Source: a virus
Virus record (IMG/VR): IMGVR_UViG_3300037258_001185
Location: 1-64,000 of that record
Length of the DNA: 64,000 nt
Direction: 5' to 3' (one strand)
Position numbers and translations under genes: made by a program. Shown in pieces: positions 1,672 to 50,922 of the stretch; positions within the stretch are counted from its first letter, which is position 1, and each line of letters opens with the position of its first letter. The notes under the pieces are model-generated. The model was given only the letters and a program-made list of their open reading frames with translations. It did not search any database and was not told where the DNA came from.

Positions 1672-2159
1672 CAGACGGCCGCCAGAACGAACCGCCGGCC
1701 GGCGGCGTCGAGGCGATAGGCGATCTCGCCCGACCAGTCGTAGTAGGCGAGCGCATATTCGCCCGGCTTGTAATCCATCTGCTCGACAAGCTGCTCGACG
1801 CTGTCGGACATGGCGTCTGGGTCATGGTCGGCGCAAACATGAGTGGCGTCGCTGGGCATGTCGCGGCTCGTGCGATATTCGAGCGCGCCATCAACGGTGA
1901 GGATCGCGTTACCGTATTCGGTCAGCCGCAAAAACTTGACGATCTCGCCGTCGGCCAGGGCGCGCGCGTCCTCTTCATCCACAAACTCGCCGGCCAGCGC
2001 CGGCAGCCCGTTCGGCAGGGTGATCAGCCAGCCGTCCGGCATCGCGCGAGGCGTCGGCGACACCTCGTCGCAGTAGATGGCCGGCACATAGCCCTTGACG
2101 GTGCCACCGGCCGGTTCGTCGACGCCCGGCAGAAGGCTGAGCTGGACTGCGTCACTCAT
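1671..2159 (-). CDS. Hypothetical protein (162 aa)
   Basis: Acidic soluble protein, coupled by short overlaps to the genes on both sides (stop at 1671, start at 2159 next to the stop of the nuclease gene). It contains aromatic-rich stretches but no family that I recognise. Early-operon placement suggests a takeover or accessory role (inference). Confidence 0.65.
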   Translation of the reverse strand: MSDAVQLSLLPGVDEPAGGTVKGYVPAIYCDEVSPTPRAMPDGWLITLPNGLPALAGEFVDEEDARALADGEIVKFLRLTEYGNAILTVDGALEYRTSRDMPSDATHVCADHDPDAMSDSVEQLVEQMDYKPGEYALAYYDWSGEIAYRLDAAGRRFVLAAV

Positions 2160-2989
2160 TTCGAGCTCCTTCGCGCTTTCGGGAGATCAGGCGCCGCGGC
2201 CGGTTCGGGGATCGCCAATTCGCCGATCGCCTCGGCCACCCTGTCGTGCATCGCACGAAGCTGCTCGTGGAGTTGCCGAAGGCCGCCATACGAGCCAGCC
2301 ACCCCGGCCTTCATCACCACCTGGACGGCGTCAATCAGGGCGGCATCACGCCAGAAATGATCAGGCTGCTCGCCGATCGCTTCGACCAGTCCGCGCCAGT
2401 GCTGGGCCGCCAGCGTGTCACCCTCACGGCGGTTCTCGACGGCCTGGCGGACACGTTCCTCGAATTGCTTGTCCTGTACCTGCCGACGCGCCTGGAACAC
2501 GGCGTCGACCTCGTCCTGATCCAGCGGCCGGCCGGCGGCGCGCAGCATCGCCGCAAGGAACGGCCGGCCCACTGGCTCAGCCGGAGTCTTCTCCGCTCGC
2601 TTGGCGACGGCCGTTTTGCCTGCGCCATCGACCACGATCATGCCCCAAGCAGGGGGCAACTCCCCGACCGGCACGACGCCGGCCGGGGCCGCGATCCAGA
2701 AATAGTCGCAGAACCGGGCAATCTGTTCGGCCTTGGACGGGTTCGCCTTCTCGCGGCGCCAGTCGTAGAGGTTGACCTTGATCTCGATGCCGTGCAGCGA
2801 CAGGCCGCGGCTCGGCCATAAATCCATAGCCACAGCATCGAGGTGACGGTGCGCCTGTGTTCCCGTCGAGTGCGCCACCTCGAAGGCGATGGCGCACTCC
2901 GGCGCCGGGAAATGCCGGCGCAGCGCGGCCCGGACGTCGGGCGCCTTCATCACCTTCGGCGCGGCCGGCCGTTCGAGCAGGTCGCTCAT
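2156..2989 (-). CDS. MmcB-like PD-(D/E)XK nuclease family protein
   Basis: 277 aa. Residues about 15-130 follow the MmcB/DUF PD-(D/E)XK-like pattern: a conserved Asp in HLDAVAMDLWPS, then GIEIKV with the ExK pair, DWRREKANPSKAEQI, and a WIAAPAGV...PPAWGMIVVDG strand. The catalytic D-ExK residues look present. The C-terminal half is helical and charged. Probably a DNA-processing nuclease in the early operon. Confidence 0.65.
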   Translation of the reverse strand: MSDLLERPAAPKVMKAPDVRAALRRHFPAPECAIAFEVAHSTGTQAHRHLDAVAMDLWPSRGLSLHGIEIKVNLYDWRREKANPSKAEQIARFCDYFWIAAPAGVVPVGELPPAWGMIVVDGAGKTAVAKRAEKTPAEPVGRPFLAAMLRAAGRPLDQDEVDAVFQARRQVQDKQFEERVRQAVENRREGDTLAAQHWRGLVEAIGEQPDHFWRDAALIDAVQVVMKAGVAGSYGGLRQLHEQLRAMHDRVAEAIGELAIPEPAAAPDLPKARRSSK

Positions 2990-3375
2990 GCGGCGATCCG
3001 TTCAGGATAAAGGAGACCCTGCAGGTGCGCGGGCAGCCGCTCGAACGACTCGCGCATCTTGCCGTCCGGCGACCGGCTGACGAGCCCCGCAGCGATGCGC
3101 CACAGGTCGATGTGGTATTTGCGGCCGAAGGTCAGGACGCCGCGGTGCTGCTCGACATGATGATCGCGGCAGAGCGGAATGCCATACGCGGCGTGCGGCT
3201 TGTCGCTCTTGCCCGAATTGGCCGCCGTCCGCTGATGGGCGAACTCGACCGGCCCGCACCAGCATCCCGGAACGCAACAGCCCTGACTGCGCACGAACGC
3301 CTCGTGCACCGGGAACACCGTCCGCTCGATCTCGCGGACGCCCATGCGCTGCCGCTTTGGCGTCGCGCGCGGCAT
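2986..3375 (-). CDS. HNH-type nuclease-like protein (DUF968 type)
   Basis: 129 aa from the ATG at 3375. A zinc-finger HNH pattern is visible: CCVPGCWCGPVEFAHQR, then IPLCRDHHVEQHRG, giving paired Cys and His ligands with the AHQR and HHVEQH catalytic region. The family (DUF968/NinB-neighbour type) is common in early regions of temperate phages and is linked to recombination. The frame extends upstream of the chosen start over the DUF1643 gene and that part looks non-coding. Confidence 0.75.
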   Translation of the reverse strand: MPRATPKRQRMGVREIERTVFPVHEAFVRSQGCCVPGCWCGPVEFAHQRTAANSGKSDKPHAAYGIPLCRDHHVEQHRGVLTFGRKYHIDLWRIAAGLVSRSPDGKMRESFERLPAHLQGLLYPERIAA

Positions 3376-5715: not shown

Positions 5716-6041
5716 CAGCATTTCCTCCACACGCGGCATTGACGCCCCGTCGGCGCGGCGGCCGTCTGTCCTGTCGGGACTGCCTTGCCGTCGGCCTTCA
5801 ACTCCGGCAGCCGCCGCGCGACCTGGACGTGGTTGAGGCCGGTCCGGCTGGCGATCTGGTAGATGGTCGCCTCGCCGTCGGCCAGGGCGCCGAGGATCGC
5901 CCCGCAATGGGCCTCGGCACTGCTGAGCTGAGCCGCAGCCGCGTGCGACGTCTCAGGATCGGAGCGCCGCGCGCGATGCTCGGCTGCTGAATACAGGTCC
6001 ACCTTCAGGCAGCTTTCGCTTCCGCGGCGGCCGGCGTGCAC
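5715..6041 (-). CDS. Small winged-helix-like DNA-binding protein
   Basis: Up to 108 aa. Residues about 45-85 (GALADGEATIYQIASRTG, then NHVQVARRLPEL) read as a helix-turn-helix with recognition helix, followed by a short Pro/Gly tail. The ATG at 6041 overlaps the upstream gene by 37 nt; a GTG at 6002, just after the upstream stop, is an equally good start. Likely a small regulator of the early operon (inference). Confidence 0.6.
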   Translation of the reverse strand: MHAGRRGSESCLKVDLYSAAEHRARRSDPETSHAAAAQLSSAEAHCGAILGALADGEATIYQIASRTGLNHVQVARRLPELKADGKAVPTGQTAAAPTGRQCRVWRKC

Positions 6042-6556
6042 TGTTCATAGGGGATGAGTACGCCGCCGTTCTGGTCGGGGTTTCGGCGCAGGTATTCGTC
6101 CGTCTGCACGACATAGGACGCTATGGCGCCGGCGATGCTGGTGATCGGCCCGCTACCGGCCGGCGTGTCGACGACCTCGCCGATCGTCAGATGCGGCCTG
6201 ACACCGTTGGCTTCCGCCCACAACTTGACGAATGCCCTCTCGGCGCCGAGCAGCGTGCTTGGCAGTCCGGCGAGGATGTCGACGAGGTGCTCGTCGGGCT
6301 GCCAGCGGTGGTCCCGCTCCAGCTTCCGGCACGCGCGATAGCCGTCCGTCTCGCCGACGACGCTCAGGAGATCCGCGACGATCTGATCGCGCGGCGTGCC
6401 GCCATATTCATCGCCGAGCCATTCGGCCACCTCAGGCAGGATTGCCGCGACCGCGGCGACCCGCACGCGGTCGTCGCGGTCGGTCGGCCGCGGCGGCGGG
6501 TTCGGCTGCTCGGGGAAGGCGAGCGGCAATAGGGCATCGGTGCGCTGATTTTCCAT
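6005..6556 (-). CDS. Hypothetical protein (183 aa)
   Basis: Soluble, acidic, predicted mostly helical; Pro-rich near residue 20. No catalytic motif seen. It lies 3 nt downstream of the terminase-like gene, so the two are probably translated together. Confidence 0.65.
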   Translation of the reverse strand: MENQRTDALLPLAFPEQPNPPPRPTDRDDRVRVAAVAAILPEVAEWLGDEYGGTPRDQIVADLLSVVGETDGYRACRKLERDHRWQPDEHLVDILAGLPSTLLGAERAFVKLWAEANGVRPHLTIGEVVDTPAGSGPITSIAGAIASYVVQTDEYLRRNPDQNGGVLIPYEQCTPAAAEAKAA

Positions 6557-6559
6557 GTG

Positions 6560-7147
6560 CTACTCCAATTGCGGCGCCACGCGCCGCATGTTCGGGCCGT
6601 CCGACGGGCCGCTGAAATGGACGGTCACCGATGCGGCCTCACGGGCCGCGCGCATTGCGCGAAGGCGCGCCGTAACCCCGTCTGGACCCTCAGGGCCATA
6701 GCGCCCTGTGCTATCGAGCAGCACGGCCCGCGGGTTGCGCCCGAGGCGCAGCCCGAACATCAGCGTGTCCCACGCCTCGCGGTGGTCGGAGCGAAAGAAC
6801 GGAAGGGGCGCGGCCCATATCGCAAAATCGTGCTGCGGACCGCGCAGCGCGGCGGGATCGTCGACGCTATAGATCTCGGAGACGGCGCCGGTCGGCCAAG
6901 AAAGGCGCGCGCGCGGCCAGTCCACCGCGGGGAGCGAAGGTGAGAAATGCCACATGAAGGCCAGATCGCCCGTCACACGATCAGCGGTGGTCACCAGGGC
7001 GATGCGTTTGCGCTCGTCGGCGATGGCCGCAAGCATGAGATCGTGAAGCGCAAGCCGACGCGGGCGCGCGACCCGCACAATGTCGATCTGGAGGCCGACA
7101 TTGTTCTCGGCGAGCCAAGAGGCGACACGGGAGGTTGGATCGGTCAT
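6560..7147 (-). CDS. Terminase large-subunit-like protein without ATPase motifs
   Basis: 195 aa. It aligns by eye with the ATPase domain of this phage's own TerL (49495-50922): KRIALV at 47-52, SWPTGA at 83-88, LRGPQHDF at 101-108, and EAWDTLMFGLRLGRNPR at 124-140, the last matching TerL at 15 of 17 positions. The Walker A P-loop region is missing, and the Walker B acidic pair of TerL (WCDE) reads IWAA here. The nuclease domain is absent. The gene is intact and coupled on its start (ATGA) to the IS110-like gene, so it is not obvious debris. A non-enzymatic role such as packaging modulation or interference is inference. Confidence 0.7.
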   Translation of the reverse strand: MTDPTSRVASWLAENNVGLQIDIVRVARPRRLALHDLMLAAIADERKRIALVTTADRVTGDLAFMWHFSPSLPAVDWPRARLSWPTGAVSEIYSVDDPAALRGPQHDFAIWAAPLPFFRSDHREAWDTLMFGLRLGRNPRAVLLDSTGRYGPEGPDGVTARLRAMRAAREAASVTVHFSGPSDGPNMRRVAPQLE

Positions 7148-8454
7148 CCGGCGTCTCCTTGCGGATTGCGATGATCCCCGAGAGCGGCGGCAGGATTACG
7201 ATGGCCTTGCGGCACTCCGGGGCTGGCCGCCACGCTCGGGGATGGGGTCAGAAGGGCATCGGCACCGGTACAATGGCCTTGCGGCAGGAACTCCTTGGCC
7301 TTTGCTCTCCTGGTGGGCTTGGCGCGGACGCCGGTCATCACGGACATGGCGGTGTCCGCGCCGATCAGGGCCGAAGCGGAGTCGGCATAGGCAGTCGGGC
7401 CTTTCGGCAACCTTCGGACGGCGTTCTCCGCTTCGGTTTGGTTCGGGGCGCCGGCGGCAACGGTCGCATGGCCTTGCGGCATCAACCAATCGGCCTCCGG
7501 CGCCCCGATCTCTTGTGCCGCGACCTCGGCGTGCCAGACACGCCACAGGTCGCGCAATACGCGCTTGGCCATGAGGCGCCGGGCGGCCATGTCGGCGTGC
7601 GCCGGCGTCCATTTGTCGGGGTTCTTCTTGCCGCCGAGCTCGGCCGGCAGGTCCGCCGTGGCGGCGACGCGCAGCGTGTACCGCGCCTTCGCCCGCCCAT
7701 AGACCTCGCCATAGGGGCCGATCGCGTGCGCCTCGGCAACAATGCCGAACGGCTCGGCGAGTTCCCTCAACTCCTCTATCTTCTTGACTTGCTTCAGGTC
7801 GATGTCGCGGCGCTGGATTTCCGCAGCGGCGGCCGGGTCATCCTCCAGCGCCTTACGGTAAGCGCCGACCTCACTGCACCATTGCTGCCTCAGCATGGCA
7901 TCATAGATGCCGACATAGATGGCGGAACGCCGCCACTTGTGCATCTGGCGTACCGCCGTCTCGTTCTCTCCCGCGCCCGCGAACCCCAGACCGAGCCGCT
8001 TCCACATTTTCGAATGGGAGGGGAAATCGGACAGACCCCGGTCCTGCGCGCCGTGGCAATGCGCCACGATCACGGCAAACGTCAGATCGCCAAACCCATT
8101 GACGGACCTGACCCAGGCGTAGGCCGGCAACTGCGGCGCCAGCCGCTCCATTTGCCGCTCGATCTTTTTCCTCTCCTTTTCGAACAGGGCGACCGCCACC
8201 AATGCGGCCATGACCGCGCCGCGCCAGGCCCCGGCCGTGTTCTCGGCGCCCTCGGCATCTGCCTTGACCGCAGCGACGATCTGACGGGCGCGTGCCGCGA
8301 TCTTCTCGCTTTCGGCTTTCGACAGGTCGCTGCGCCACCCGAGGGCGCTGCGAAGTTGTCCTCCCATGCGATTTGAAATCGCCGTCGTTTGACTGACGAG
8401 GCCGGCCCTGACCCGATTGAGTCCGGCCAAGGCCTGCACCGCGTCGCTCAGCAT
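7144..8454 (-). CDS. IS110-type Transposase_20-like protein lacking the RuvC-like domain, with palindrome-encoded C-terminal repeats
   Basis: 436 aa. After an N-terminal helical region (1-105), residues about 108-180 match the IS110/IS116 C-terminal transposase pattern: VRSVNGFGDLTFAVIVAH, FPSHSKMWKRLGLG, and MHKWRRSAIYVGIYDAM, with a later ADMAARRLMAKRVLRDLW helix. The N-terminal DEDD (RuvC-like) domain of IS110 transposases is absent, and the usual Ser-Gly-Gly stretch after the LGL motif reads GAGEN. The last 110 residues contain four repeats beginning xPxGx, each from one palindromic DNA element. Probably a domesticated transposase relative used in phage recombination (inference). Confidence 0.65.
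   Translation of the reverse strand: MLSDAVQALAGLNRVRAGLVSQTTAISNRMGGQLRSALGWRSDLSKAESEKIAARARQIVAAVKADAEGAENTAGAWRGAVMAALVAVALFEKERKKIERQMERLAPQLPAYAWVRSVNGFGDLTFAVIVAHCHGAQDRGLSDFPSHSKMWKRLGLGFAGAGENETAVRQMHKWRRSAIYVGIYDAMLRQQWCSEVGAYRKALEDDPAAAAEIQRRDIDLKQVKKIEELRELAEPFGIVAEAHAIGPYGEVYGRAKARYTLRVAATADLPAELGGKKNPDKWTPAHADMAARRLMAKRVLRDLWRVWHAEVAAQEIGAPEADWLMPQGHATVAAGAPNQTEAENAVRRLPKGPTAYADSASALIGADTAMSVMTGVRAKPTRRAKAKEFLPQGHCTGADALLTPSPSVAASPGVPQGHRNPAAALGDHRNPQGDAG
7174..7243. repeat. In-gene palindromic element, copy 1
   Basis: Arms 7174-7190 and 7227-7243 pair at 14 of 17 positions. The core ATGGCCTTGCGGCA lies at 7201-7214. On the minus strand it encodes VPQGHRNPA near the end of the IS110-like protein. 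Confidence 0.75.
7262..7300. repeat. In-gene palindromic element, copy 2 (core only)
   Basis: Same 14-base core at 7273-7286 (ATGGCCTTGCGGCA), encoding LPQGHCTGAD on the minus strand. I could not find complementary arms, so this copy has probably decayed. Outer limits are approximate. Confidence 0.55.
7371..7436. repeat. In-gene palindromic element, copy 3
   Basis: Perfect 11-base arms CCGAAGCGGAG (7371-7381) and CTCCGCTTCGG (7426-7436) around the core GGCCTTTCGGCA at 7398-7409, encoding LPKGPTAYAD on the minus strand. Confidence 0.8.
7444..7507. repeat. In-gene palindromic element, copy 4
   Basis: Arms 7444-7458 and 7493-7507 pair at 14 of 15 positions; core ATGGCCTTGCGGCA at 7468-7481, encoding MPQGHATVAA. 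It starts 7 bases after copy 3. Confidence 0.8.
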
Positions 8455-9227
8455 GACAGACCTCCGGCGATGCGCAGCGCCTCCGCCATGATCGCCTCGG
8501 TGATCTGGCTGCGGATCGGTTTGCGCGGGTCCGCAATCAGGCTGCAGAGCGCTTTGGCGAGCGCGAGGTTGCGGCCCGTCCGCTCAGCCCAGGCGCCGAC
8601 CTCCTCGGTCGTGCAGTCGAGCATCGAGCGGCCGTTGACGCGAACTTCCTCAAATTCGGGATGGGCGGAACTGCGGACCGCAGCGGCGGCGTGCATCGCC
8701 CGCAAGCGACCCTGCTGGATTTCTTCACTCGGCGCCGGGGGCGAAACAGCGGTTGCTTGGCCTTGCGGCACTCGGTTGCTGGCCTCGCCCCCGGCATGGG
8801 TTGCCGTTCCCGGATCTGCATTACGGCTCGGGCCTCGCGGCAATCCGGTTCCGGCCTCTCCGGGAACGGCATTTTGTCCGACCCGCGCATCGGCATCTGT
8901 AGCCTGGCCTTTCGGCAAAGATGCCGTGGCCTTTGCGCGGGTCGGTGTGGTTTCGCCTTTGCGGCGAATTTCGTCGTCGAGCGATTTGTTCAGCGCCGGG
9001 CGGCTTGCACCGCAGTATTCCCACAGGATCGCCTCCGGGTCGGCGTCCCGGCTGACGCAGAGCCGGAAATAGCCGTCGTTGCCATCGACACCGAACAGTC
9101 GCACCTCATCGCGCCGGATCACCTTGAGGCGTTCCCGCGGCGTCAGCGGCGGCTCTGGCTGTATCCTTGAAACGGCGCGCCGCAACTGGTCGTTGACCTG
9201 TGCTTCCAATTCACTTTCCCCCATCAT
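8448..9227 (-). CDS. Repeat-containing hypothetical protein (259 aa)
   Basis: N-terminal region of about 85 residues, a middle made of three consecutive palindrome-encoded xPxGx repeats (about residues 95-165), and a helical C-terminal domain containing FEEVRVNGRSMLDCTTEEV. I associate the overall design, a small C-terminal domain preceded by such repeats, with rhizobial phage proteins, but know no function. ATG at 9227 chosen; the frame is open to 9251. It overlaps RecT upstream and the IS110-like gene downstream. Confidence 0.65.
   Translation of the reverse strand: MMGESELEAQVNDQLRRAVSRIQPEPPLTPRERLKVIRRDEVRLFGVDGNDGYFRLCVSRDADPEAILWEYCGASRPALNKSLDDEIRRKGETTPTRAKATASLPKGQATDADARVGQNAVPGEAGTGLPRGPSRNADPGTATHAGGEASNRVPQGQATAVSPPAPSEEIQQGRLRAMHAAAAVRSSAHPEFEEVRVNGRSMLDCTTEEVGAWAERTGRNLALAKALCSLIADPRKPIRSQITEAIMAEALRIAGGLSC
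8734..8795. repeat. In-gene palindromic element, copy 5
   Basis: Perfect 11-base arms GCCGGGGGCGA (8734-8744) and TCGCCCCCGGC (8785-8795); core GGCCTTGCGGCA at 8759-8770, encoding VPQGQATAVS in the 259-aa protein. Confidence 0.8.
8802..8871. repeat. In-gene palindromic element, copy 6
   Basis: Perfect 12-base arms TGCCGTTCCCGG (8802-8813) and CCGGGAACGGCA (8860-8871); core GGCCTCGCGGCA at 8831-8842, encoding LPRGPSRNAD. Confidence 0.8.
8878..8945. repeat. In-gene palindromic element, copy 7
   Basis: Perfect 12-base arms CCGACCCGCGCA (8878-8889) and TGCGCGGGTCGG (8934-8945); core GGCCTTTCGGCA at 8906-8917, encoding LPKGQATDAD. Confidence 0.8.
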
Positions 9228-10140
9228 CACGGGCTGCCGCCGCCGAGGCATCGGGATTTCGGCCTTCCGGCATATTCCTTATGGCCTCGGCGGCGCCCTC
9301 GGTCGTGGCGTCCATCAGGAAATCAGTGTTGGTGACGGTCGGCGCCGCCGGCGGCAGGTCGCGCACCTCTTCGAGGATCGACAGGCCGCCGAGGTTATCC
9401 ATGAAGCCGGCGCGCAGCGCGATCGCCGTCGCCCGGACCATCAGCATTTCGCCCGGCGCGTTCATCCACCACGGCCGCTTCGGGTTGCGCCACAGACCGG
9501 CCCGGCGCGCGTCACGGATCGAGTAGCGGCCGACATAGGGCTCGCTTTGGCCGCGGCGCCAGATGCGGTAATCGGCGCTAACGGCGTCGGTGAACTCGGC
9601 CAGGGTGTTCTCGTCGCGGACATCGTCGGGGACGCCGAGCAGCTTGCGCTCGACCCGCTCGACCAAGCCGCCGCGCTGCGCCAGGGCGAGCGCGCCCGCA
9701 CACAGAATGCAGTAGCGGCCGTCCTGCAGGATGATCTTGTCGAGCGCCGTCGAAGGCGGCATGCCGAGGTCGGCGCCCATGCGGATCGCGACGACGAGGC
9801 GCGCCTTTGTCTGCTTGTCGTTACCCGTGACGACGAAGGTGTTCGGCACCGTGCCGGCGCGGATCAGCTCAATCGCCCGCTGGCCGGCCTCGCGCGCGGT
9901 GACACGCGGGGGCGCATACCCGGCCTTGATACGCTCCGGCGTATCGGCAGGATTCGCAAATCCGGCCCGAAGCGGCGCGGGCGCCGCCGGCCTTTCGCGC
10001 ACTTGTGAAGCGCCCCGGTTCCGGCCGCCTTTGTCGGTCAGGCCATCCGACAAAACAACGCGGCCGACAACGAGATCCCCATCACAAACATGCGTATCTT
10101 GCGCTTTTTGTTTGCCGACCGAGGCGCTGATAACGGACAT
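9211..10140 (-). CDS. recT: RecT-family single-strand annealing recombinase
   Basis: 309 aa from the ATG at 10140. Residues about 90-265 carry the RecT pattern: an AIRMGADLGMPPSTALDKI block, GRYCILCAGALALAQRGG, RYSIRDARRAGLW, and PGEMLMVRATAIALRAGF before an EEVRDL motif. RecT proteins anneal complementary single strands and work with a 5'-3' exonuclease; a RecE-like exonuclease lies at 11421-12497. The C-terminus ends with a palindrome-encoded repeat, an addition to the normal fold. Confidence 0.88.
   Translation of the reverse strand: MSVISASVGKQKAQDTHVCDGDLVVGRVVLSDGLTDKGGRNRGASQVRERPAAPAPLRAGFANPADTPERIKAGYAPPRVTAREAGQRAIELIRAGTVPNTFVVTGNDKQTKARLVVAIRMGADLGMPPSTALDKIILQDGRYCILCAGALALAQRGGLVERVERKLLGVPDDVRDENTLAEFTDAVSADYRIWRRGQSEPYVGRYSIRDARRAGLWRNPKRPWWMNAPGEMLMVRATAIALRAGFMDNLGGLSILEEVRDLPPAAPTVTNTDFLMDATTEGAAEAIRNMPEGRNPDASAAAARDDGGK
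9236..9297. repeat. In-gene palindromic element, copy 8
   Basis: Arms 9236-9249 and 9284-9297 pair at 13 of 14 positions; core GGCCTTCCGGCA at 9261-9272, encoding MPEGRNPDAS at the C-terminus of RecT. It also lies just upstream of the start of the next gene. Confidence 0.75.
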
Positions 10141-11420: not shown

Positions 11421-12497
11421 CTAGGCGGCCGCCAGATAGGCCGGAAATTCCAGATGGTCGAAGGTGTCGATATCGCTGATATCGACCCACGGATCGGTGC
11501 CGAACGACTGCCAGCACTCGGCGAATTTGCGCATTCCCTCGGCGATCTCGATGCGCGCGACATCGAGGACGCTGCCCTCGCCGAGCACCATGCCGCGCGC
11601 GACCGCCGCCGGGCCCTTTTGCTGAAAGACAAACATGAAGGTGTGCAAGTCCGACTGCTCGGCGAGGGACTTGATGAAGCCGCGGTCGACCTCGCCGGAG
11701 ACGCGGCCCTCGGCGGCGAACCGTCGCGCCTGGAAGGCACCTCGCAGATAGAGCGCGGCCTGGATATGGTAGGCATGGTTCGCCACGGCGTTGGCGATGG
11801 CGCGCCGCACCGGAATGCGGTTGATGTTGGCGAAGGACTTCAGGTCGACGATCGCCAGCGGCTTCAGGTAGTCGAAGCGGCATTTCAGAGGGACGCCGGT
11901 CTCCTCGTCGATCCAGAACACGGAGACCTGCGGCAGGCCGCCAGTGAATGCGCGGCGCAGTTGCGGGTGGTTGTCGATCATCGCTGCGGCGAGCTCGATC
12001 CGCCGCACGGTCTCGGCCGGCAGGAACTCCCGGCCCGGGTATTTCCCCTCGTGTTCGCGCTGAATCGTGTCCCAGACCTGGGCAGCCGGATCGACGTCGG
12101 CCAGCCTGGCGATCAGCTCAGACTTGCGCTGCGATTTCGTGGCCTTGAGACCGAGTTCGACGAGGACCGCCGCCAACTGCTCGTTCGTGCGCAACGCGTT
12201 CGGATGGGCAGCCGGATCGAGCGCTGGCGCGTAGAGCGCGTCGAACGCCGCCTTGCCCTCGACGATCCGCTTGTCGTAGGCCCGGCCGTCCCGCAGCGCG
12301 ACGGTGTCGCGCGGCTCGCGCTCGGGATTGAGGATGCTGTCGACCCAGAAGTCGAGGGTCGATATGCGGATGTTCCGGATGCCGCTCGACGACAGCGCGA
12401 GGGCGCCATGATATTGCTCGTCAGGCATCCCGAAATAAATCCCGGGCTCGACCGTCAGCGGATGGTTGACCGATATCGGGTAGGTCCAGTCGCTCAA
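11421..12497 (-). CDS. RecE-like PD-(D/E)XK exonuclease (DUF3799 type)
   Basis: 358 aa. N-terminal GIYFGMPDEQYHGALALSSS and FWVDSILNPER are typical of the DUF3799/RecE-like nucleases. The catalytic core is PLKCRFDYL (Asp) followed by AIVDLKS (D-x-K). Expected to resect dsDNA 5' ends to feed RecT, forming a RecE/RecT-type recombination pair within the same operon. Confidence 0.85.
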   Translation of the reverse strand: MSDWTYPISVNHPLTVEPGIYFGMPDEQYHGALALSSSGIRNIRISTLDFWVDSILNPEREPRDTVALRDGRAYDKRIVEGKAAFDALYAPALDPAAHPNALRTNEQLAAVLVELGLKATKSQRKSELIARLADVDPAAQVWDTIQREHEGKYPGREFLPAETVRRIELAAAMIDNHPQLRRAFTGGLPQVSVFWIDEETGVPLKCRFDYLKPLAIVDLKSFANINRIPVRRAIANAVANHAYHIQAALYLRGAFQARRFAAEGRVSGEVDRGFIKSLAEQSDLHTFMFVFQQKGPAAVARGMVLGEGSVLDVARIEIAEGMRKFAECWQSFGTDPWVDISDIDTFDHLEFPAYLAAA

Positions 12498-12808
12498 TGT
12501 GGCGTCCCTCCCCAGATGATCGAGGCCAATTCCAATCCGGCGTAAACGGTGAGCGCCATACCGGCCACGGCGGCCATAGCTGTGGCAGTGATCCAGCCGG
12601 CCTCAGTCGCGCGCGAGTCGGCGACAACCGGCGGGACAGGGCGCTTCAAAACGAGGAGATTGCCGAGGCGCCCAGAAACGGCGCACAGCTCCCAGCCATC
12701 GTCACCGAAGGGCACGAGCCGCTCGGAGAGGCTAAGTTCGGTGAAATTCAGGTCGAGGGTCCGATATTCCCACCGCCCCGTCACAGTCTCCGCCGCATCC
12801 CGGCTCAT
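12494..12808 (-). CDS. DUF4177-like protein with C-terminal membrane segment
   Basis: 104 aa. Residues 12-56 (WEYRTLDL, GDDGWELCAVSG, LLVLKRP) match the small DUF4177 beta-fold. Residues about 70-98 form one hydrophobic helix, so the protein is probably membrane-anchored. Overlaps both neighbours by 4 nt. Confidence 0.65.
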   Translation of the reverse strand: MSRDAAETVTGRWEYRTLDLNFTELSLSERLVPFGDDGWELCAVSGRLGNLLVLKRPVPPVVADSRATEAGWITATAMAAVAGMALTVYAGLELASIIWGGTPH

Positions 12809-14109
12809 GCTGCGGCCTCCTCCGGCAGGAGGGCGCCGACAACCGCGCCGTCGTCGATCACAATGCCGGTCGCGGCGGCGCCGTCACTGACACGCTCCAG
12901 CCAGAGCTGGTAGCCGTTGCCGGCGACCACTTCGGACAGGATGCGCAGGCTGTCATCGTCGAGCAACGAACCGTCACGTACGCAAAGGACGCGAAGGTTG
13001 GGATTCCCGGCCATGGCGATACCGACCGAGACCCGGATTTTTTCCGCCTGACTCGCCTGATTGAACGGCAGCCCGCGGTACATCACCTCGCCGTCGCCGA
13101 AGCCGAGTCCTTCGACCGGGAATTGCGCCCGACCGATCGCATCGGCCTTCTGCTGGTCGCAGGCTTCAATCGCATCGGTAAGCGTGCGCGATTGCGTCTC
13201 CAGGATATCCGCTTCGGCCTCTACCGTGCTCCGTCTGACACGTTCGGCGATGGCGGCGTTGGTCTGCTGCGCCGCGCCGATCGCGACGGCGAGCGCCGCG
13301 GTGTCAGTCGGCTCCGGCAGTGGCGGCAGCGCGGCGATGTTGACAAAGATCGCCGTCCGGTCACTTTCCAAGTCGCGGATGTCGCTCCACAGTTTGCGCG
13401 CCTCCTGCAGCAGCGTCTTGCGCCGCGCGCGGAGCTTCAGGGACTCGGTGCGCTGGCGCTCGACATGCTGATTCATACCGGCGCGCCGGGAGCGTTCACG
13501 CTCAACCCCGCGATTGTGCTCGCTGGCCCGCGCCACCTCGGCCATCAACGCCTCAGTGTCGACCGGCGTCGCCGGCAGGTCGGCGGCAACCTCGATACCC
13601 GCCGCCTTGCCGCGCAGCGCCTGCGCCTCACGGTTGACGTCGGTGCGCTGCGCGTAGTGCGTCGCACGCTGCTCGGCGAGCTCGTCAAGGTTGATGTCGA
13701 GGTGGACGAAACGGCGCAGTGTCTCGATCTGCTCCTTGGGCCGCATGCGGGTGAACGCGAGAGGATCGAACGATATCGTCCCGATCAGCTTGTCGAGCAC
13801 CGCCTGCGGGCTCGGGAACCGAGCGCCATTGTGCTGCGCGACGGTGAGGGGCGAGTTGCCGCTCGGCAAGAAACGCCGGGTGACGATCAAGTCGCCGAGA
13901 TCAAGAGTAATCTCGGCGCGGTCGGTGCCCTCGCGGATCGGGCGCGACGGGGCGACATCGGCGCCTCCGAGCGCCGCCCAGATCGCGTCGAGGACCGAAC
14001 TCTTGCCCTGGCCGTTGCGGCCGCGGATTTCGACAATCGGCCCCTCGGGCCTGATTGCCACGGCCCGCAGCCTTTTGAAGTTCTCGGCGGCGAACGATAC
14101 GATCTGCAT
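12805..14109 (-). CDS. RecF/SMC-like ATPase
   Basis: 434 aa. N-terminal ABC-type half: FKRLRAVAIRP, then Walker A GRNGQGKSS at residues 30-38. The centre (about 150-290) is a charged coiled coil. The C-terminal half has an NQASQAEKIRVSVG signature-like motif and an LRVLCVRDGSLLDDDSL Walker-B-like strand. A short RecF/SMC arrangement common beside RecE/RecT in phages; probably binds DNA ends or forks. Confidence 0.82.
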   Translation of the reverse strand: MQIVSFAAENFKRLRAVAIRPEGPIVEIRGRNGQGKSSVLDAIWAALGGADVAPSRPIREGTDRAEITLDLGDLIVTRRFLPSGNSPLTVAQHNGARFPSPQAVLDKLIGTISFDPLAFTRMRPKEQIETLRRFVHLDINLDELAEQRATHYAQRTDVNREAQALRGKAAGIEVAADLPATPVDTEALMAEVARASEHNRGVERERSRRAGMNQHVERQRTESLKLRARRKTLLQEARKLWSDIRDLESDRTAIFVNIAALPPLPEPTDTAALAVAIGAAQQTNAAIAERVRRSTVEAEADILETQSRTLTDAIEACDQQKADAIGRAQFPVEGLGFGDGEVMYRGLPFNQASQAEKIRVSVGIAMAGNPNLRVLCVRDGSLLDDDSLRILSEVVAGNGYQLWLERVSDGAAATGIVIDDGAVVGALLPEEAAA

Positions 14110-18376: not shown

Positions 18377-18779
18377 GCGTCATTGGTCGCAGGTGACGCG
18401 CCGGCTGCCGAAGGCACTCAGGACGACATCGGACGGCATCACCTTCGACAGCGCCGGCGAGAAATCCCGCTGGCACCAACTGCAATTGCTGGAGCGCGGC
18501 GGCCAGATCGCCGCGCTGCGCCGGCAGGTGAAGTTCCCGTTGATCCTGGCAAACGGGCGCCCGATCAAGATCCGCAGCGCCGGATTTCCGAACGGCCGGG
18601 CGTGCAACTACCGCGCGGACTTCGCCTATACCGTCACCGGCACCGGCGAACGCGTCGTCGAGGAGCACAAAGGACACGACGACCCGGTTGCCCGCCTGCG
18701 ACGCGCGGTCGTCGAGGCGCTCTACAATATCGAGATCACGCTGACCGGACCGGCGGCCCGACGGCGGCGCGCGCCGTGA
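18369..18779 (+). CDS. DUF1064 family endonuclease-like protein
   Basis: 136 aa. Family motifs: ITFDSAGEKSRWHQL, IAALRRQVKFPL, the strand YRADFAYTV with conserved Asp, and VVEEHKG (E-x-K), then RLRRAVVEALYNIEI. DUF1064 proteins are PD-(D/E)XK-like and are often annotated as phage Holliday-junction or DNA-processing nucleases. Confidence 0.82.
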   Translation: MGKRHWSQVTRRLPKALRTTSDGITFDSAGEKSRWHQLQLLERGGQIAALRRQVKFPLILANGRPIKIRSAGFPNGRACNYRADFAYTVTGTGERVVEEHKGHDDPVARLRRAVVEALYNIEITLTGPAARRRRAP

Positions 18780-19837
18780 CGGTAACAATCCTCATCGGCG
18801 ACGCGCTGCGGCATCTGCGGCAACTGCCGGGTGACAGCGTCCATTGCCTCTGCACGTCGCCGCCATACTGGCGGCAGCGCGATTATGGCGTCCCCGATCA
18901 GCTCGGGCTTGAAGGGACTCCTGAGGGCTATGTCGCAAAGTTGACCGAGGTCTTCCGCGAGGCGAGGCGGGTGCTGCGCCCGGACGGCGTCTGCTGGATC
19001 AACATCGGCGACAAATGGGCAGCAAGCGGTCAAGGGGGAGGCGCCCAAAGCAAGGAGCACGCATACGGATCGGTTCCCGACGCCGCCAAATCACGAGAGT
19101 GGCGCAAGCCGCCGCACGGCTACAAAGATAAGGATCTGCTCGGACTTCCTTGGATGCTCGCCTTTGCGCTCCGGGCCGACGGATGGTGGCTCCGGCAATG
19201 CAATATTTGGGCGAAGCCGAACGGGATGCCCGAGTCGACGCGGGACCGCACGACAACCGCCCATGAATATGTGCTGCACCTGACGAAATCGGCCGAGTAT
19301 TGGTACGACAGCGCCGCAACCCGCTTGCCCGCAGTTCCCGAGAGCGTCGGCCGCCTCGAACGCGCGATGCGCGCCAGCCTCGATGCCGGCGCTTTCGTGA
19401 TCAGCGGCAGCGGATATGAACCGCCTGGGCAGCCCCCGCACCAGGGAGCGCGCCGCACCGATAAGCAGCGCGGGCACACCAGACGGCACGCCGGGTTCAA
19501 CGACCGCTGGGACGCGATGTCCCGCGCCGAACAGCAAGGAAAGGGCTCGCAGCTTCGTTCCGTCTGGTGGTTGCCAACCGCCAACTTCGCGGAGGGCCAT
19601 TTCGCGGTCATGCCGGAAGAGTTGGCGGCGATTTGCGTGCTCGCGGGGTGTCCGGCCGGCGGCACGGTTCTCGATCCATTTGCGGGCGCCGGCACCACCC
19701 TGATGGTAGCCGACCACCTCGGGCGCGATGCCATTGGCATCGAATTGAACCCGGCGTTCGCCGCCATGGCGGAGAGGCGCGTCAAAGAGCCTGGCCTGAT
19801 GCTCGATGCGGCACCGACGGCGGAGCGCGCTGCGTGA
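18776..19837 (+). CDS. DNA methyltransferase, beta class (SPPYW)
   Basis: 353 aa from the GTG at 18776, overlapping the upstream stop. The catalytic motif SPPYW is near residue 28; the SAM-binding motif DPFAGAGTT is near the C-terminus (about 305). This order (catalytic first) is the beta class of amino-MTases (N4-C or N6-A). Probably an orphan modification enzyme against host restriction; no partner endonuclease is visible. Confidence 0.88.
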   Translation: MTVTILIGDALRHLRQLPGDSVHCLCTSPPYWRQRDYGVPDQLGLEGTPEGYVAKLTEVFREARRVLRPDGVCWINIGDKWAASGQGGGAQSKEHAYGSVPDAAKSREWRKPPHGYKDKDLLGLPWMLAFALRADGWWLRQCNIWAKPNGMPESTRDRTTTAHEYVLHLTKSAEYWYDSAATRLPAVPESVGRLERAMRASLDAGAFVISGSGYEPPGQPPHQGARRTDKQRGHTRRHAGFNDRWDAMSRAEQQGKGSQLRSVWWLPTANFAEGHFAVMPEELAAICVLAGCPAGGTVLDPFAGAGTTLMVADHLGRDAIGIELNPAFAAMAERRVKEPGLMLDAAPTAERAA

Positions 19838-42574: not shown

Positions 42575-43176
42575 GGGGCGCCGACCTGATCGTGCCGCGC
42601 TCAACCACCGCGCTGATCCCCTACGTCGGGAACAGCCGGACGCACAGCCCGGAGCAGGTGCAGCAGATCGCGGGCTCGATCCGCGAATTCGGCTTCACCA
42701 ATCCGGTGCTGATCGACCAGGACAACGGCATCATCGCCGGGCACGGCCGCGTCCTGGCCGCTCAGTTGCTTGGCCTGTCTGAAGTGCCCTGCATCGTGCT
42801 CAGCCACCTCTCGCCGGCGCAGCGGCGCGCCTACGTCATCGCCGACAACAAGCTGGCGCTCAACGCCGGCTGGGACGAGAAAATGCTCGCCCTCGAGCTC
42901 GACGAGCTGAAGGCGGGCGGCTTCGACCTCGACCTCACCGGGTTCGGCGAGGTCGAGCGCGCCGATCTGGAGTTGCGGCTGAATGATCCTGCGCCGTCGG
43001 GCGGCAATGACGCGCCGCCCGACGCGGAGCCGATGGAGTTGCGCTGGGGCAATACCCGGCTGCCGATCACGGCGACCGAGAAACTGGCGCTGACCGGCCG
43101 GCTCGATCAGCACTTGAAGGATTTCGGCGCGCCCTACGGCTTCGTTCGGGAAGGGCTGGGGCTCGGCGCCGAATAG
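42571..43176 (+). CDS. ParB N-terminal domain protein (201 aa)
   Basis: Domain signature in order: LIPYVGNSRTHSPEQVQQIA, SIREFGFTNPVLIDQDNGII, AGHGRVLAAQLLGL, VIADNKLALNAGWD. The family often precedes DNA methyltransferase domains in phage proteins; this copy is stand-alone. It is a paralogue of the protein at 46137-46736. Confidence 0.88.
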   Translation: MRGADLIVPRSTTALIPYVGNSRTHSPEQVQQIAGSIREFGFTNPVLIDQDNGIIAGHGRVLAAQLLGLSEVPCIVLSHLSPAQRRAYVIADNKLALNAGWDEKMLALELDELKAGGFDLDLTGFGEVERADLELRLNDPAPSGGNDAPPDAEPMELRWGNTRLPITATEKLALTGRLDQHLKDFGAPYGFVREGLGLGAE

Positions 43177-46136: not shown

Positions 46137-46736
46137 ATGAACATCCCAGACAGGATCGTTCAGCGGCCGACGGCGGCGCTGATTCCCTACGCCCGCAACA
46201 GCCGGACCCACAGCGAGCGCCAGGTCGCGCAGATCGCCGCCAGCATCCGGGAGTTCGGCTTTACCAACCCCGTGCTGATCGACGCCGAGGACGGCATCAT
46301 CGCCGGGCACGGCCGCGTCCTGGCGGCGCACACGCTCGGCGTGATCGAGGTGCCGTGCATCGTGCTGGCGCACCTGACTGAGCTGCAAAAGCGCGCCTAT
46401 GTGATCGCCGACAACCGCCTCGCCGAGAGCGCCGGCTGGGATGACGCGGCGCTGTCGGCGGAACTGGCGCGACTTGAGGAAGACGGCTTCAACCTCGGCC
46501 TGACCGGCTTCGATCCGATCGAGCTACGCGGCCTGATGGGCAGCAAGGATCTGCTCGACCCAACCGACGGCCGGGCCGAACACGGCGCCACCTTGCCGCG
46601 GCTGTTCATCGACGACCGCGCCGTCCTGATAACCTCGGAGGAACGCGACATGCTGCAGGATGCCTACGACCGGCACATGGAGACCTACGGCGTCACCGAC
46701 GGCTTTGTCGCGACGCTGCTGAGCAGCGGCCGATGA
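46137..46736 (+). CDS. ParB N-terminal domain protein, paralogue (199 aa)
   Basis: ALIPYARNSRTHSERQVAQI, REFGFTNPVLIDAEDGIIAG, HGRVLAAHTLG, VIADNRLAESAGWDDAAL: the same domain as 42571-43176, with strong identity in the first 130 residues. The C-terminal ends also correspond (a YDRHMETYGVTDGFV-type motif against DQHLKDFGAPYGFV). Likely a duplicated gene whose partner may be the ParB-methyltransferase next door. Confidence 0.88.
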   Translation: MNIPDRIVQRPTAALIPYARNSRTHSERQVAQIAASIREFGFTNPVLIDAEDGIIAGHGRVLAAHTLGVIEVPCIVLAHLTELQKRAYVIADNRLAESAGWDDAALSAELARLEEDGFNLGLTGFDPIELRGLMGSKDLLDPTDGRAEHGATLPRLFIDDRAVLITSEERDMLQDAYDRHMETYGVTDGFVATLLSSGR

Positions 46737-49124: not shown

Positions 49125-49592
49125 ATGACCAAGAGACACGTACCGAGCGACCGGACGCGGGCGACGGTCGAGGCGCTTGCCGCCTACGGCATCCCCGAGG
49201 AACACATCGCGGCTGACATCGGCGTCTCGCCGCCGACGCTGCGCAAGCACTACCGCGCCGAACTCGATACCGCCGCGACCCGCGCCAACGCCAAGGTCGG
49301 CGAGTTTCTGTTCTCGATGGCCACCGGCCGCAACGGGCCGCTTGCTCGCGACAAGGATGGCTCGGTCATCCGCGACGCCAACGGCGTTCCAATCCGGGAG
49401 GCCGATTACCGCGCCTCGACGACAGCAGCGATCTTCTGGGCGAAGACTCGGATGCTTTGGCGCGAGGTCTCCGGTGTAAATCTGAGTGTCGAAGATGATT
49501 CGTCCGGCGCGCGAGAACTGCTCACTCGCGCAATCGATCGCCTCGCTCCCGCCGGAGGAGAGGAGACGGCTACTACGGCGCCTGAAGCCTGA
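49125..49592 (+). CDS. terS: Terminase small subunit
   Basis: 155 aa. N-terminal HTH: TRATVEALAAYGIPEEHIAA, DIGVSPPTLRKHY, then a helical centre with TTAAIFWAKTRMLWRE. Immediately precedes and overlaps TerL, the usual order. Expected to recognise the packaging site; no cos or pac site could be identified. Confidence 0.85.
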   Translation: MTKRHVPSDRTRATVEALAAYGIPEEHIAADIGVSPPTLRKHYRAELDTAATRANAKVGEFLFSMATGRNGPLARDKDGSVIRDANGVPIREADYRASTTAAIFWAKTRMLWREVSGVNLSVEDDSSGARELLTRAIDRLAPAGGEETATTAPEA

Positions 49593-50922
49593 AGCCGTCA
49601 AGGAACTGCTCTACGATTGGAAGTTCTGGGCGCGGCCCAACCAGCTCGCGCCGCCGGGCGACTGGAGAACCTGGCTGGTGCTCGCGGGGCGCGGCTTCGG
49701 CAAGACCCGCACAGGCGCCGAGTTGGTCCGCGATCGCGTGGCGGCCGGCTATAAGCGCATCGCGCTCGTCGGCGCGACGGCGGCCGACACCCGCGACGTC
49801 ATGGTCGAGGGCGAGAGCGGTATCCTGGCGATTTCTCCGGCCAACAACCGGCCGCGCTACGTTTCAACGGTACGGCGCCTGATGTGGCCCAACGGGGCAA
49901 TCGCCACAACCTATTCGGCAGAAGAGCCGGAGCGCCTTCGCGGTCCGCAGCACGATTTCGCCTGGTGCGACGAGATTGCCGCGTGGCGATATCCGGAAGC
50001 GTGGGACATGCTGATGTTCGGGCTGCGCCTCGGGCGCGACCCGCGGTCCGTCGTGACGACAACGCCGAAGCCGATCAAGCTGGTGCGGGATCTGCTGGCC
50101 GACCCGACGACAAAAATCACTCGCGGTTCGACCTACGACAACCGCGGCAACCTGGCGCCGGCGTTCTTCACCCAGATCATCCGCAAATACGAAGGCACGC
50201 GCCTCGGGCGACAGGAAATCGAGGCCGAGTTGCTCGCCGACACGCCGGGCGCGCTGTGGACCATGAAGCGGATCGATGAGTTGCGCGTCAATCGTGGCGC
50301 CTATCCCGAGCTCACGCGGATCGTCGTCGCGATCGACCCGGCCGTTTCAACCGGCGAGGATTCGGACGAAACGGGCATCGTGGTGGCCGGCAAGAGCGCC
50401 GCCGGCCACGGCTATGTGCTGCATGACGGCTCCGGTCGGATGATGCCGACCGAGTGGGCGCGCGCGGCAATCAAGGCCTATCGGGACCATCACGCCGACC
50501 GTGTTGTCGCGGAGGTCAATCAAGGCGGCGATATGGTCGAGACGACCGTGCGCATGGTCGACCCCAATGTTTCCTATACCGCCGTCCACGCCAGCCGGGG
50601 AAAGGTCGTCCGGGCCGAGCCGGTCGCGGCGCTCTACGAGCAGGGCAGAATCCATCACGTCGGCGCGTTCCCGCAACTCGAAGATCAGATGTGCGCGTTC
50701 ACCAGCGATTTCGACAGGAAATCGTCGGGGTCGCCGGATCGCGTTGACGCGCTGGTCTGGGCATTCACCGAATTGCTGGTCGACCAGGCGGCGGGCGCTG
50801 GCGTCGCTGGCTTTACCCGCCGCCTTGCCGACGAGACCCGGGCTGCCGCCCAGAAACCGCTAGCGACAAAGGTTATTCCGGCCCGCGGCTCGAAGGAATG
50901 GCAAGAGCTGTACGGGGAGTGA
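49495..50922 (+). CDS. terL: Terminase large subunit (Terminase_6 type)
   Basis: About 475 aa; start at ATG 49495 or a nearby codon, overlapping terS. Walker A LAGRGFGKT at residues 63-71, coupling region LRGPQHDFAWCDE (Walker B acidic pair), and C-terminal RNase H-like nuclease starting IVVAIDPAVSTGEDSDETGI with later acidic residues near DRVDALVWA. Packages DNA into proheads. Part of its ATPase domain is mirrored by the protein at 6560-7147. Confidence 0.95.
   Translation: MIRPARENCSLAQSIASLPPEERRRLLRRLKPEAVKELLYDWKFWARPNQLAPPGDWRTWLVLAGRGFGKTRTGAELVRDRVAAGYKRIALVGATAADTRDVMVEGESGILAISPANNRPRYVSTVRRLMWPNGAIATTYSAEEPERLRGPQHDFAWCDEIAAWRYPEAWDMLMFGLRLGRDPRSVVTTTPKPIKLVRDLLADPTTKITRGSTYDNRGNLAPAFFTQIIRKYEGTRLGRQEIEAELLADTPGALWTMKRIDELRVNRGAYPELTRIVVAIDPAVSTGEDSDETGIVVAGKSAAGHGYVLHDGSGRMMPTEWARAAIKAYRDHHADRVVAEVNQGGDMVETTVRMVDPNVSYTAVHASRGKVVRAEPVAALYEQGRIHHVGAFPQLEDQMCAFTSDFDRKSSGSPDRVDALVWAFTELLVDQAAGAGVAGFTRRLADETRAAAQKPLATKVIPARGSKEWQELYGE

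What the first reader, a model, noticed from the sequence alone, without database searches (positions are those of the whole stretch)
6560..7147. Terminase paralogue lacking ATPase and nuclease motifs in the early region
The 195-aa protein matches this phage's TerL over the ATPase domain (for example LRGPQHDF and EAWD.LMFGLRLGR.PR) but lacks the P-loop and the Walker B acidic pair. It is intact, coupled to its neighbour and placed in the early operon, about 42 kb from terL. A dead terminase-like protein could titrate TerS or prohead, time packaging, or interfere with rival phages or satellites.
Basis: partly seen in the sequence, partly recalled or inferred. Interest (0 to 1): 0.75.

Follow-up and report, generated by a model that had tools for sequence, protein, structure and literature searches.

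The report
Captured terminase fragment behind TIGR-Tas
A small phage gene contains a piece of the virus's own DNA-packaging motor gene, without the parts that burn ATP or cut DNA; it looks like a captured and diverged fragment sitting beside an RNA-guided TIGR-Tas system, and whether it blocks packaging or does nothing is not known.

Summary
The ORF at 6560-7147 (minus strand, 195 aa) is real, open and in frame with its neighbours, and it is related to this phage's TerL (45% over 119 aa, E 6e-21). The match covers only an internal segment: residues ~47-143, strongest at 72-143 (TerL ~87-190). Residues 1-46 and 145-195 show no TerL similarity. The P-loop and motif C therefore lie outside the shared segment. 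Only the Walker B 'DE' is lost inside it, while the arginine-finger loop (LRGPQHD; R equals P74-26 R139) and EAWDxLMFGLRLGRxPR are kept. I found no second gene like it in about 290 loci, over 60 viral records, two public collections or 289 alphaproteobacterial genomes, though relatives sharing this early region are not in the databases.

The coupled upstream gene is a TIGR-Tas (Nop-domain) protein with eight stem-loop tigRNA units. In other phages ProQ/FinO, or terS-terL, follows tas. Best reading: a terL segment captured behind a mobile TIGR-Tas cassette, now a chimeric, phage-specific ORF with no shown packaging role. A decoy binding TerL through the arginine-finger patch remains possible. 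The TIGR units lie in frame inside protein-coding ORFs, which may be more interesting than the assigned finding.

The parts
6560..7147 (-). 195-aa ORF (P0001) with an internal TerL-derived segment
   Evidence: the sense frame is open and has the best codon score of six frames over the whole ORF (0.198; other genes 0.35-0.39), GC3 0.79
6719..7009 (-). DNA encoding P0001 residues 47-143, the TerL-homologous segment
   Evidence: residues 1-46 and 145-195 not TerL-like
6821..6853 (-). AALRGPQHDFA: arginine-finger loop; shares near-identical DNA with terL 49936-49961
   Evidence: R102 corresponds to P74-26 TerL R139
6723..6778 (-). EAWDTLMFGLRLGRNPRAV: 93% DNA identity over 56 nt with terL 49996-50051
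49486..50922 (+). the phage's own terL (478 aa), intact Walker A (GRGFGKT), Walker B (DE) and motif C (TTTP)
7144..8454 (-). tas: Nop-domain (IS110-like) protein of a TIGR-Tas system; its ORF reads on through four array units
   Evidence: NCBIfam NF052498 E 8.3e-20, 71.7 bits, below the curated cut-off of 100; units inside the ORF
7185..7506 (-). TIGR stem-loop units 5-8 (loop repeats ending at 7481, 7409, 7286, 7214), directly upstream of P0001
8700..9300 (-). TIGR stem-loop units 1-4 (loop repeats at 9272, 8917, 8842, 8770), in the recT-like and 8448-9251 ORFs
6005..6556 (-). next gene downstream, phrog_11118-like, unknown function

Best explanation
P0001 is a chimeric ORF built around a captured internal piece of a terL gene (TerL about 87-190). 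It lies in the cargo slot directly behind a TIGR-Tas locus. The piece probably came along when a tas cassette that once lay beside a terminase gene was moved, or by RecT/exonuclease-type recombination (both kinds of gene are in the same operon). It then diverged, lost Walker B and gained unrelated ends, while short exchanges with the resident terL kept two tracts near-identical. Shown: the homology, its limits, the intact frame, the TIGR-Tas neighbour, and tas next to terS-like and terL genes in two other phages. Inferred: the capture route, the gene conversion, and the absence of a packaging role for the product.
For: TerL similarity is confined to residues ~47-143, and the ends are unrelated. 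It is a singleton: no second Walker-less or short relative in 273 loci, 50 TerL-bearing viral records, 11 further viral records, most of them TIGR-Tas-bearing, INPHARED, PLSDB, genome contigs or 289 alphaproteobacterial genomes. Codon identity with own terL is 18/18 in two blocks against 7/31 outside; pairs of TerLs give 0.51 against 0.45. The longest identical-codon run is 12 (permutation p 0.0015; maximum 11 in 195 TerLs), consistent with local recombination. tas lies directly upstream of terS-like and terL genes in L275 and L281. The slot behind tas is ProQ/FinO in L282, so it varies between phages. The codon score is lower than that of other phage genes.
Against: The frame is intact despite five or six indels against TerL, and 27 of 38 TerL-conserved columns in the segment are kept against 0 of 21 outside it. 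A useless fragment should have decayed more evenly, so some coding selection is likely. The blocks for the codon test were chosen after seeing the alignment. The TerLs beside tas in L275 and L281 are of another type (L281: Terminase_3), so they are not the donors.
Confidence: 0.5

Rival explanations
1. P0001 is a working packaging decoy: the product presents the TerL arginine-finger loop and the following helix to a TerL neighbour, sits on or in the motor ring without an ATP site, and so slows or blocks packaging by its own phage early on or by a related competitor.
For: The LRG arginine corresponds to P74-26 R139, the trans-acting finger (PMC5727402). It and the post-Walker-B helix are the best-kept parts, while the phage keeps a normal TerL. 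T4 motors doped with inactive subunits package less well but tolerate one (PMC8589836). The frame is intact and coupled. The model's nearest solved fold is the P74-26 TerL ATPase domain (the model rests on a TerL alignment and has pLDDT 60).
Against: The segment lacks the P-loop, first strand and motif C that complete the fold, and its ends are not TerL-like. It occurs in one phage only. HK97 TerL works without such a finger (PMC9410871).
Confidence: 0.28
2. P0001 is an accessory of the TIGR-Tas system (for example a helper for RNA or DNA binding) recruited from terL, with no link to packaging.
For: It starts in the tas stop codon (ATGA). In L282 the same coupled position holds a ProQ/FinO RNA-chaperone-family gene.
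Against: No other tas locus found carries a TerL-fragment gene at this position. The coupling may simply reflect an operon.
Confidence: 0.12
3. The DNA matters rather than the protein: two tracts kept identical to terL act as a recombination or decoy target.
For: 93% identity over 56 nt and 92% over 26 nt with terL, saturated elsewhere.
Against: None of this phage's own spacer pairs matches these tracts, or any site in the record with fewer than 3 mismatches in 18. Protein constraint plus codon bias explains part of the identity.
Confidence: 0.05

Closest known systems
Phage large terminase (TerL), Terminase_6N/6C family; P74-26 and T4 gp17 as solved examples
   Same: Residues ~47-143 are homologous, including the arginine-finger loop
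   Different: No P-loop, Walker B acids, motif C or nuclease domain; unrelated N- and C-terminal ends
Split TerL (ATPase-only ORF plus separate nuclease ORF; L289, L290 from two alphaproteobacterial genomes)
   Same: A TerL-type ATPase region encoded apart from the nuclease
   Different: Those keep Walker A and B intact and have the nuclease ORF beside them; the phage here has a complete TerL elsewhere
Duplicated and translocated head genes, e.g. the diverged second major capsid gene ~21 kb away in Caulobacter phage Colossus (PMC3556154)
   Same: Diverged second copy of a morphogenesis gene far from the original
   Different: There it is a paralogue of the capsid protein; here only an internal segment of TerL in a chimeric ORF
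TIGR-Tas systems (PMC12045711)
   Same: The coupled neighbour and its eight dual-spacer stem-loop units fit this system
   Different: P0001 is not a described component; the units here lie in frame inside ORFs

Membership tests
Terminase large subunit (TerL) | Walker A P-loop | tested here: not met
   0 of 11 conserved columns at TerL 60-85 kept
Terminase large subunit (TerL) | Walker B acidic pair | tested here: not met
   WCDE replaced by WAAP
Terminase large subunit (TerL) | Motif C and lid | tested here: not met
   0 of 10 columns at TerL 191-230 kept
Terminase large subunit (TerL) | RNase H-like nuclease domain | tested here: not met
   Absent; ORF ends
Terminase large subunit (TerL) | Common descent of the core segment | tested here: met
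Dominant-negative / decoy TerL subunit | Keeps the trans-acting arginine-finger patch | tested here: met
   R102 in LRGPQHDF corresponds to P74-26 R139 by motif; that R acts as a finger in this TerL family is inferred
Dominant-negative / decoy TerL subunit | Binds TerL or inhibits packaging | not testable with these tools
   Needs experiment
TIGR-Tas (neighbour 7144-8454 and arrays) | Nop-domain Tas protein | tested here: met
   NF052498 E 8e-20, below the curated cut-off; homologues found by DNA pattern of the repeat unit alone reach up to 122 bits against a cut-off of 100
TIGR-Tas (neighbour 7144-8454 and arrays) | Repeated units with two 9-nt spacers, box C CC(A) and box D TG, palindromic stems | tested here: met
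   8 units, 7 of them the best stem-scoring hits on the minus strand of the genome
TIGR-Tas (neighbour 7144-8454 and arrays) | Processed tigRNA | not testable with these tools
   Needs small-RNA sequencing

The most novel reading that the evidence does not exclude
A phage has turned a piece of its terminase into a small motor poison or pacing factor: an inert piece that offers the arginine finger to a TerL neighbour but has no ATP site, made early from a TIGR-Tas operon to hold back packaging or to block competitors.
Probability: 0.15. Interest if true: 0.75.

Novelty: new variant of a known kind. Interest (0 to 1): 0.38.

Why it matters
If the product does bind TerL, it would be a virus-encoded inhibitor of a viral packaging motor. 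If not, it is a case of a terminase piece carried as cargo with an RNA-guided TIGR-Tas locus, and it suggests that tas cassettes move next to and away from terminase genes. The surroundings (TIGR units read in frame inside protein-coding ORFs in several phages) may matter more than the finding itself.

Tried and rejected
P0001 alone as query in viral contigs and genome contigs: no relatives. Neighbours 6005-6556, 7144-8454 and recT-like as queries in viral contigs: none. The idea that P0001 is a whole dead ATPase domain with mutated motifs was my first reading by eye; it was dropped when the ends scored no better than shuffles. Frameshifted remains of terL in the flanks: none. Short open frames among alphaproteobacterial hits (257, 259, 270 and 300 aa) turned out to be split or truncated TerLs with intact motifs. 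Own TIGR spacer pairs against the 84-kb record: best match 3 mismatches in 18, no credible target. Three of the longest close-TerL viral contigs (G003, G010, G027) share structural genes but not this early region, so they cannot test loss or gain of P0001. PDB searches by sequence with P0001, TerL and a TerL profile found nothing.

Full report
The ORF. Window 6560-7147 on the minus strand encodes 195 aa without a stop. It shares ATGA with the gene upstream (7144-8454) and is followed after 3 nt by the ATG of 6005-6556. The surrounding minus-strand run holds RecT-like, exonuclease VIII-like, SMC-like, dCMP deaminase, MmcB-like and DUF5131 genes, so 'early/recombination region' is a fair inference. 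Over the whole ORF the sense frame has the best codon score of six frames and GC3 0.79, but the score (0.198) is below that of other phage genes (0.35-0.39). In the first 46 codons an antisense frame scores slightly higher.

Relation to TerL. Own TerL at 49486-50922 is complete. P0001 matches it at 45% over 119 aa, E 6e-21, and a TerL profile at hhalign probability 99%. An HMM of about 197 TerLs aligns residues 72-143. The ends, residues 1-46 and 145-195, score like shuffles against the corresponding TerL columns (p 0.52 and 0.92), and no TerL piece appears in other frames nearby. Of columns conserved in at least 90% of TerLs, P0001 keeps 0/11 at the P-loop, 6/10 at 86-128, 11/14 at 129-157, 2/5 around Walker B, 8/9 at 170-190 and 0/10 at motif C and lid. 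So what can be shown is an internal TerL segment in an ORF with unrelated ends, with only Walker B demonstrably lost inside it. Ends that diverged beyond recognition cannot be told apart from ends that were never TerL.

What is kept. TerL's SAEEPERLRGPQHDFAWCDE corresponds to P74-26's SADRPDNLRGATLDFVILDE, in which the LRG arginine is R139. That residue is the confirmed trans-acting finger of P74-26 (PMC5727402), although HK97 TerL has no classical finger (PMC9410871). P0001 keeps it as R102. The correspondence rests on the motif; the hhalign alignment of that stretch agrees but its overall probability is poor. The AlphaFold model (TerL alignment, pLDDT 60, residues 144-195 below 50) is nearest to P74-26 TerL ATPase structures; because TerLs were in the alignment this is weak support.

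DNA level. Two stretches are near-identical to own terL: 52/56 and 24/26 nt. Among same-residue degenerate codons, 18/18 are identical inside two blocks and 7/31 outside; 195 other TerLs against own terL give 0.51 and 0.45. The blocks were chosen after seeing the alignment. The longest-run test, which needs no such choice, gives p 0.0015, and P0001's run of 12 exceeds all 195 TerLs (maximum 11). Local gene conversion with terL is my reading; it is suggestive, not proven.

Distribution. No other gene of this kind was found: viral contigs, phage records (the listed hits lie in annotated terminase or packaging genes), plasmids, genome contigs, 289 alphaproteobacterial genomes, and other TIGR-Tas-bearing contigs. 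The close TerL relatives examined share structural genes only, and the neighbours of P0001 found no relatives in viral contigs, so the early region is unsampled and absence says little.

The neighbour. 7144-8454 matches NCBIfam TIGR_Tas_endo (8e-20, below its curated cut-off) and IS110. Eight units of the form GGCC-box C, 9-nt spacer, TGCCGNNAGGCC loop, 9-nt spacer, TG lie at 9272, 8917, 8842, 8770, 7481, 7409, 7286 and 7214. Seven of them are the best stem-bearing matches on that strand of the genome. This fits the stem-loop type of TIGR array described in PMC12045711. A search of viral contigs with the repeat unit alone brought back ten loci, seven of which encode a Tas homologue, an independent check of the assignment. 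Behind tas, L282 and L279 carry a coupled ProQ/FinO gene; L275 and L281 carry terS-like and terL genes ('terS-like' is by position and by eye, Pfam found no family). No unit lies in P0001.

Judgement. The most economical account is a terL segment captured in the cargo position behind a TIGR-Tas cassette, chimeric and phage-specific. The intact frame, several in-frame indels and the uneven retention argue that it has been translated and selected for at least part of its history, so a decoy function is kept at about 0.28. Nothing here shows any effect on packaging.

Noticed in passing
window 7185-9300; L277, L278, L279, L280, L283, L286: TIGR stem-loop units are read in the same codon frame (NTG|CCG|NNA|GGC) within long ORFs in the window and in most other loci; spacings inside clusters are multiples of 3. 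The array seems to be protein-coding as well as guide-encoding, including the tail of Tas itself.
   Followed up: partly
L275 7941-10606; L281 9114-12040: tas genes directly upstream of terS-like and terL genes on the same strand in two phages.
   Followed up: partly
L289, L290 (G175, G279): terL split into an ATPase ORF with intact motifs (257/259 aa) and a separate nuclease ORF (196/197 aa) about 400 nt away.
   Followed up: no
L293 (G047) 1850-3160 and 12434-13753: Two full TerL genes with intact motifs about 10 kb apart on one viral contig.
   Followed up: no
window 18383-19837: N6/N4 DNA methyltransferase whose homologue in contig G003 lies between terL and portal.
   Followed up: no
window 42583-42878 and 46149-46444: 296-nt direct repeat, 74% identical.
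   Followed up: no
L282 925-1491 and window 8448-9251: Genes upstream of tas carry an array unit followed by a C-terminal region that looks similar by eye; possible conserved partner of Tas.
   Followed up: no
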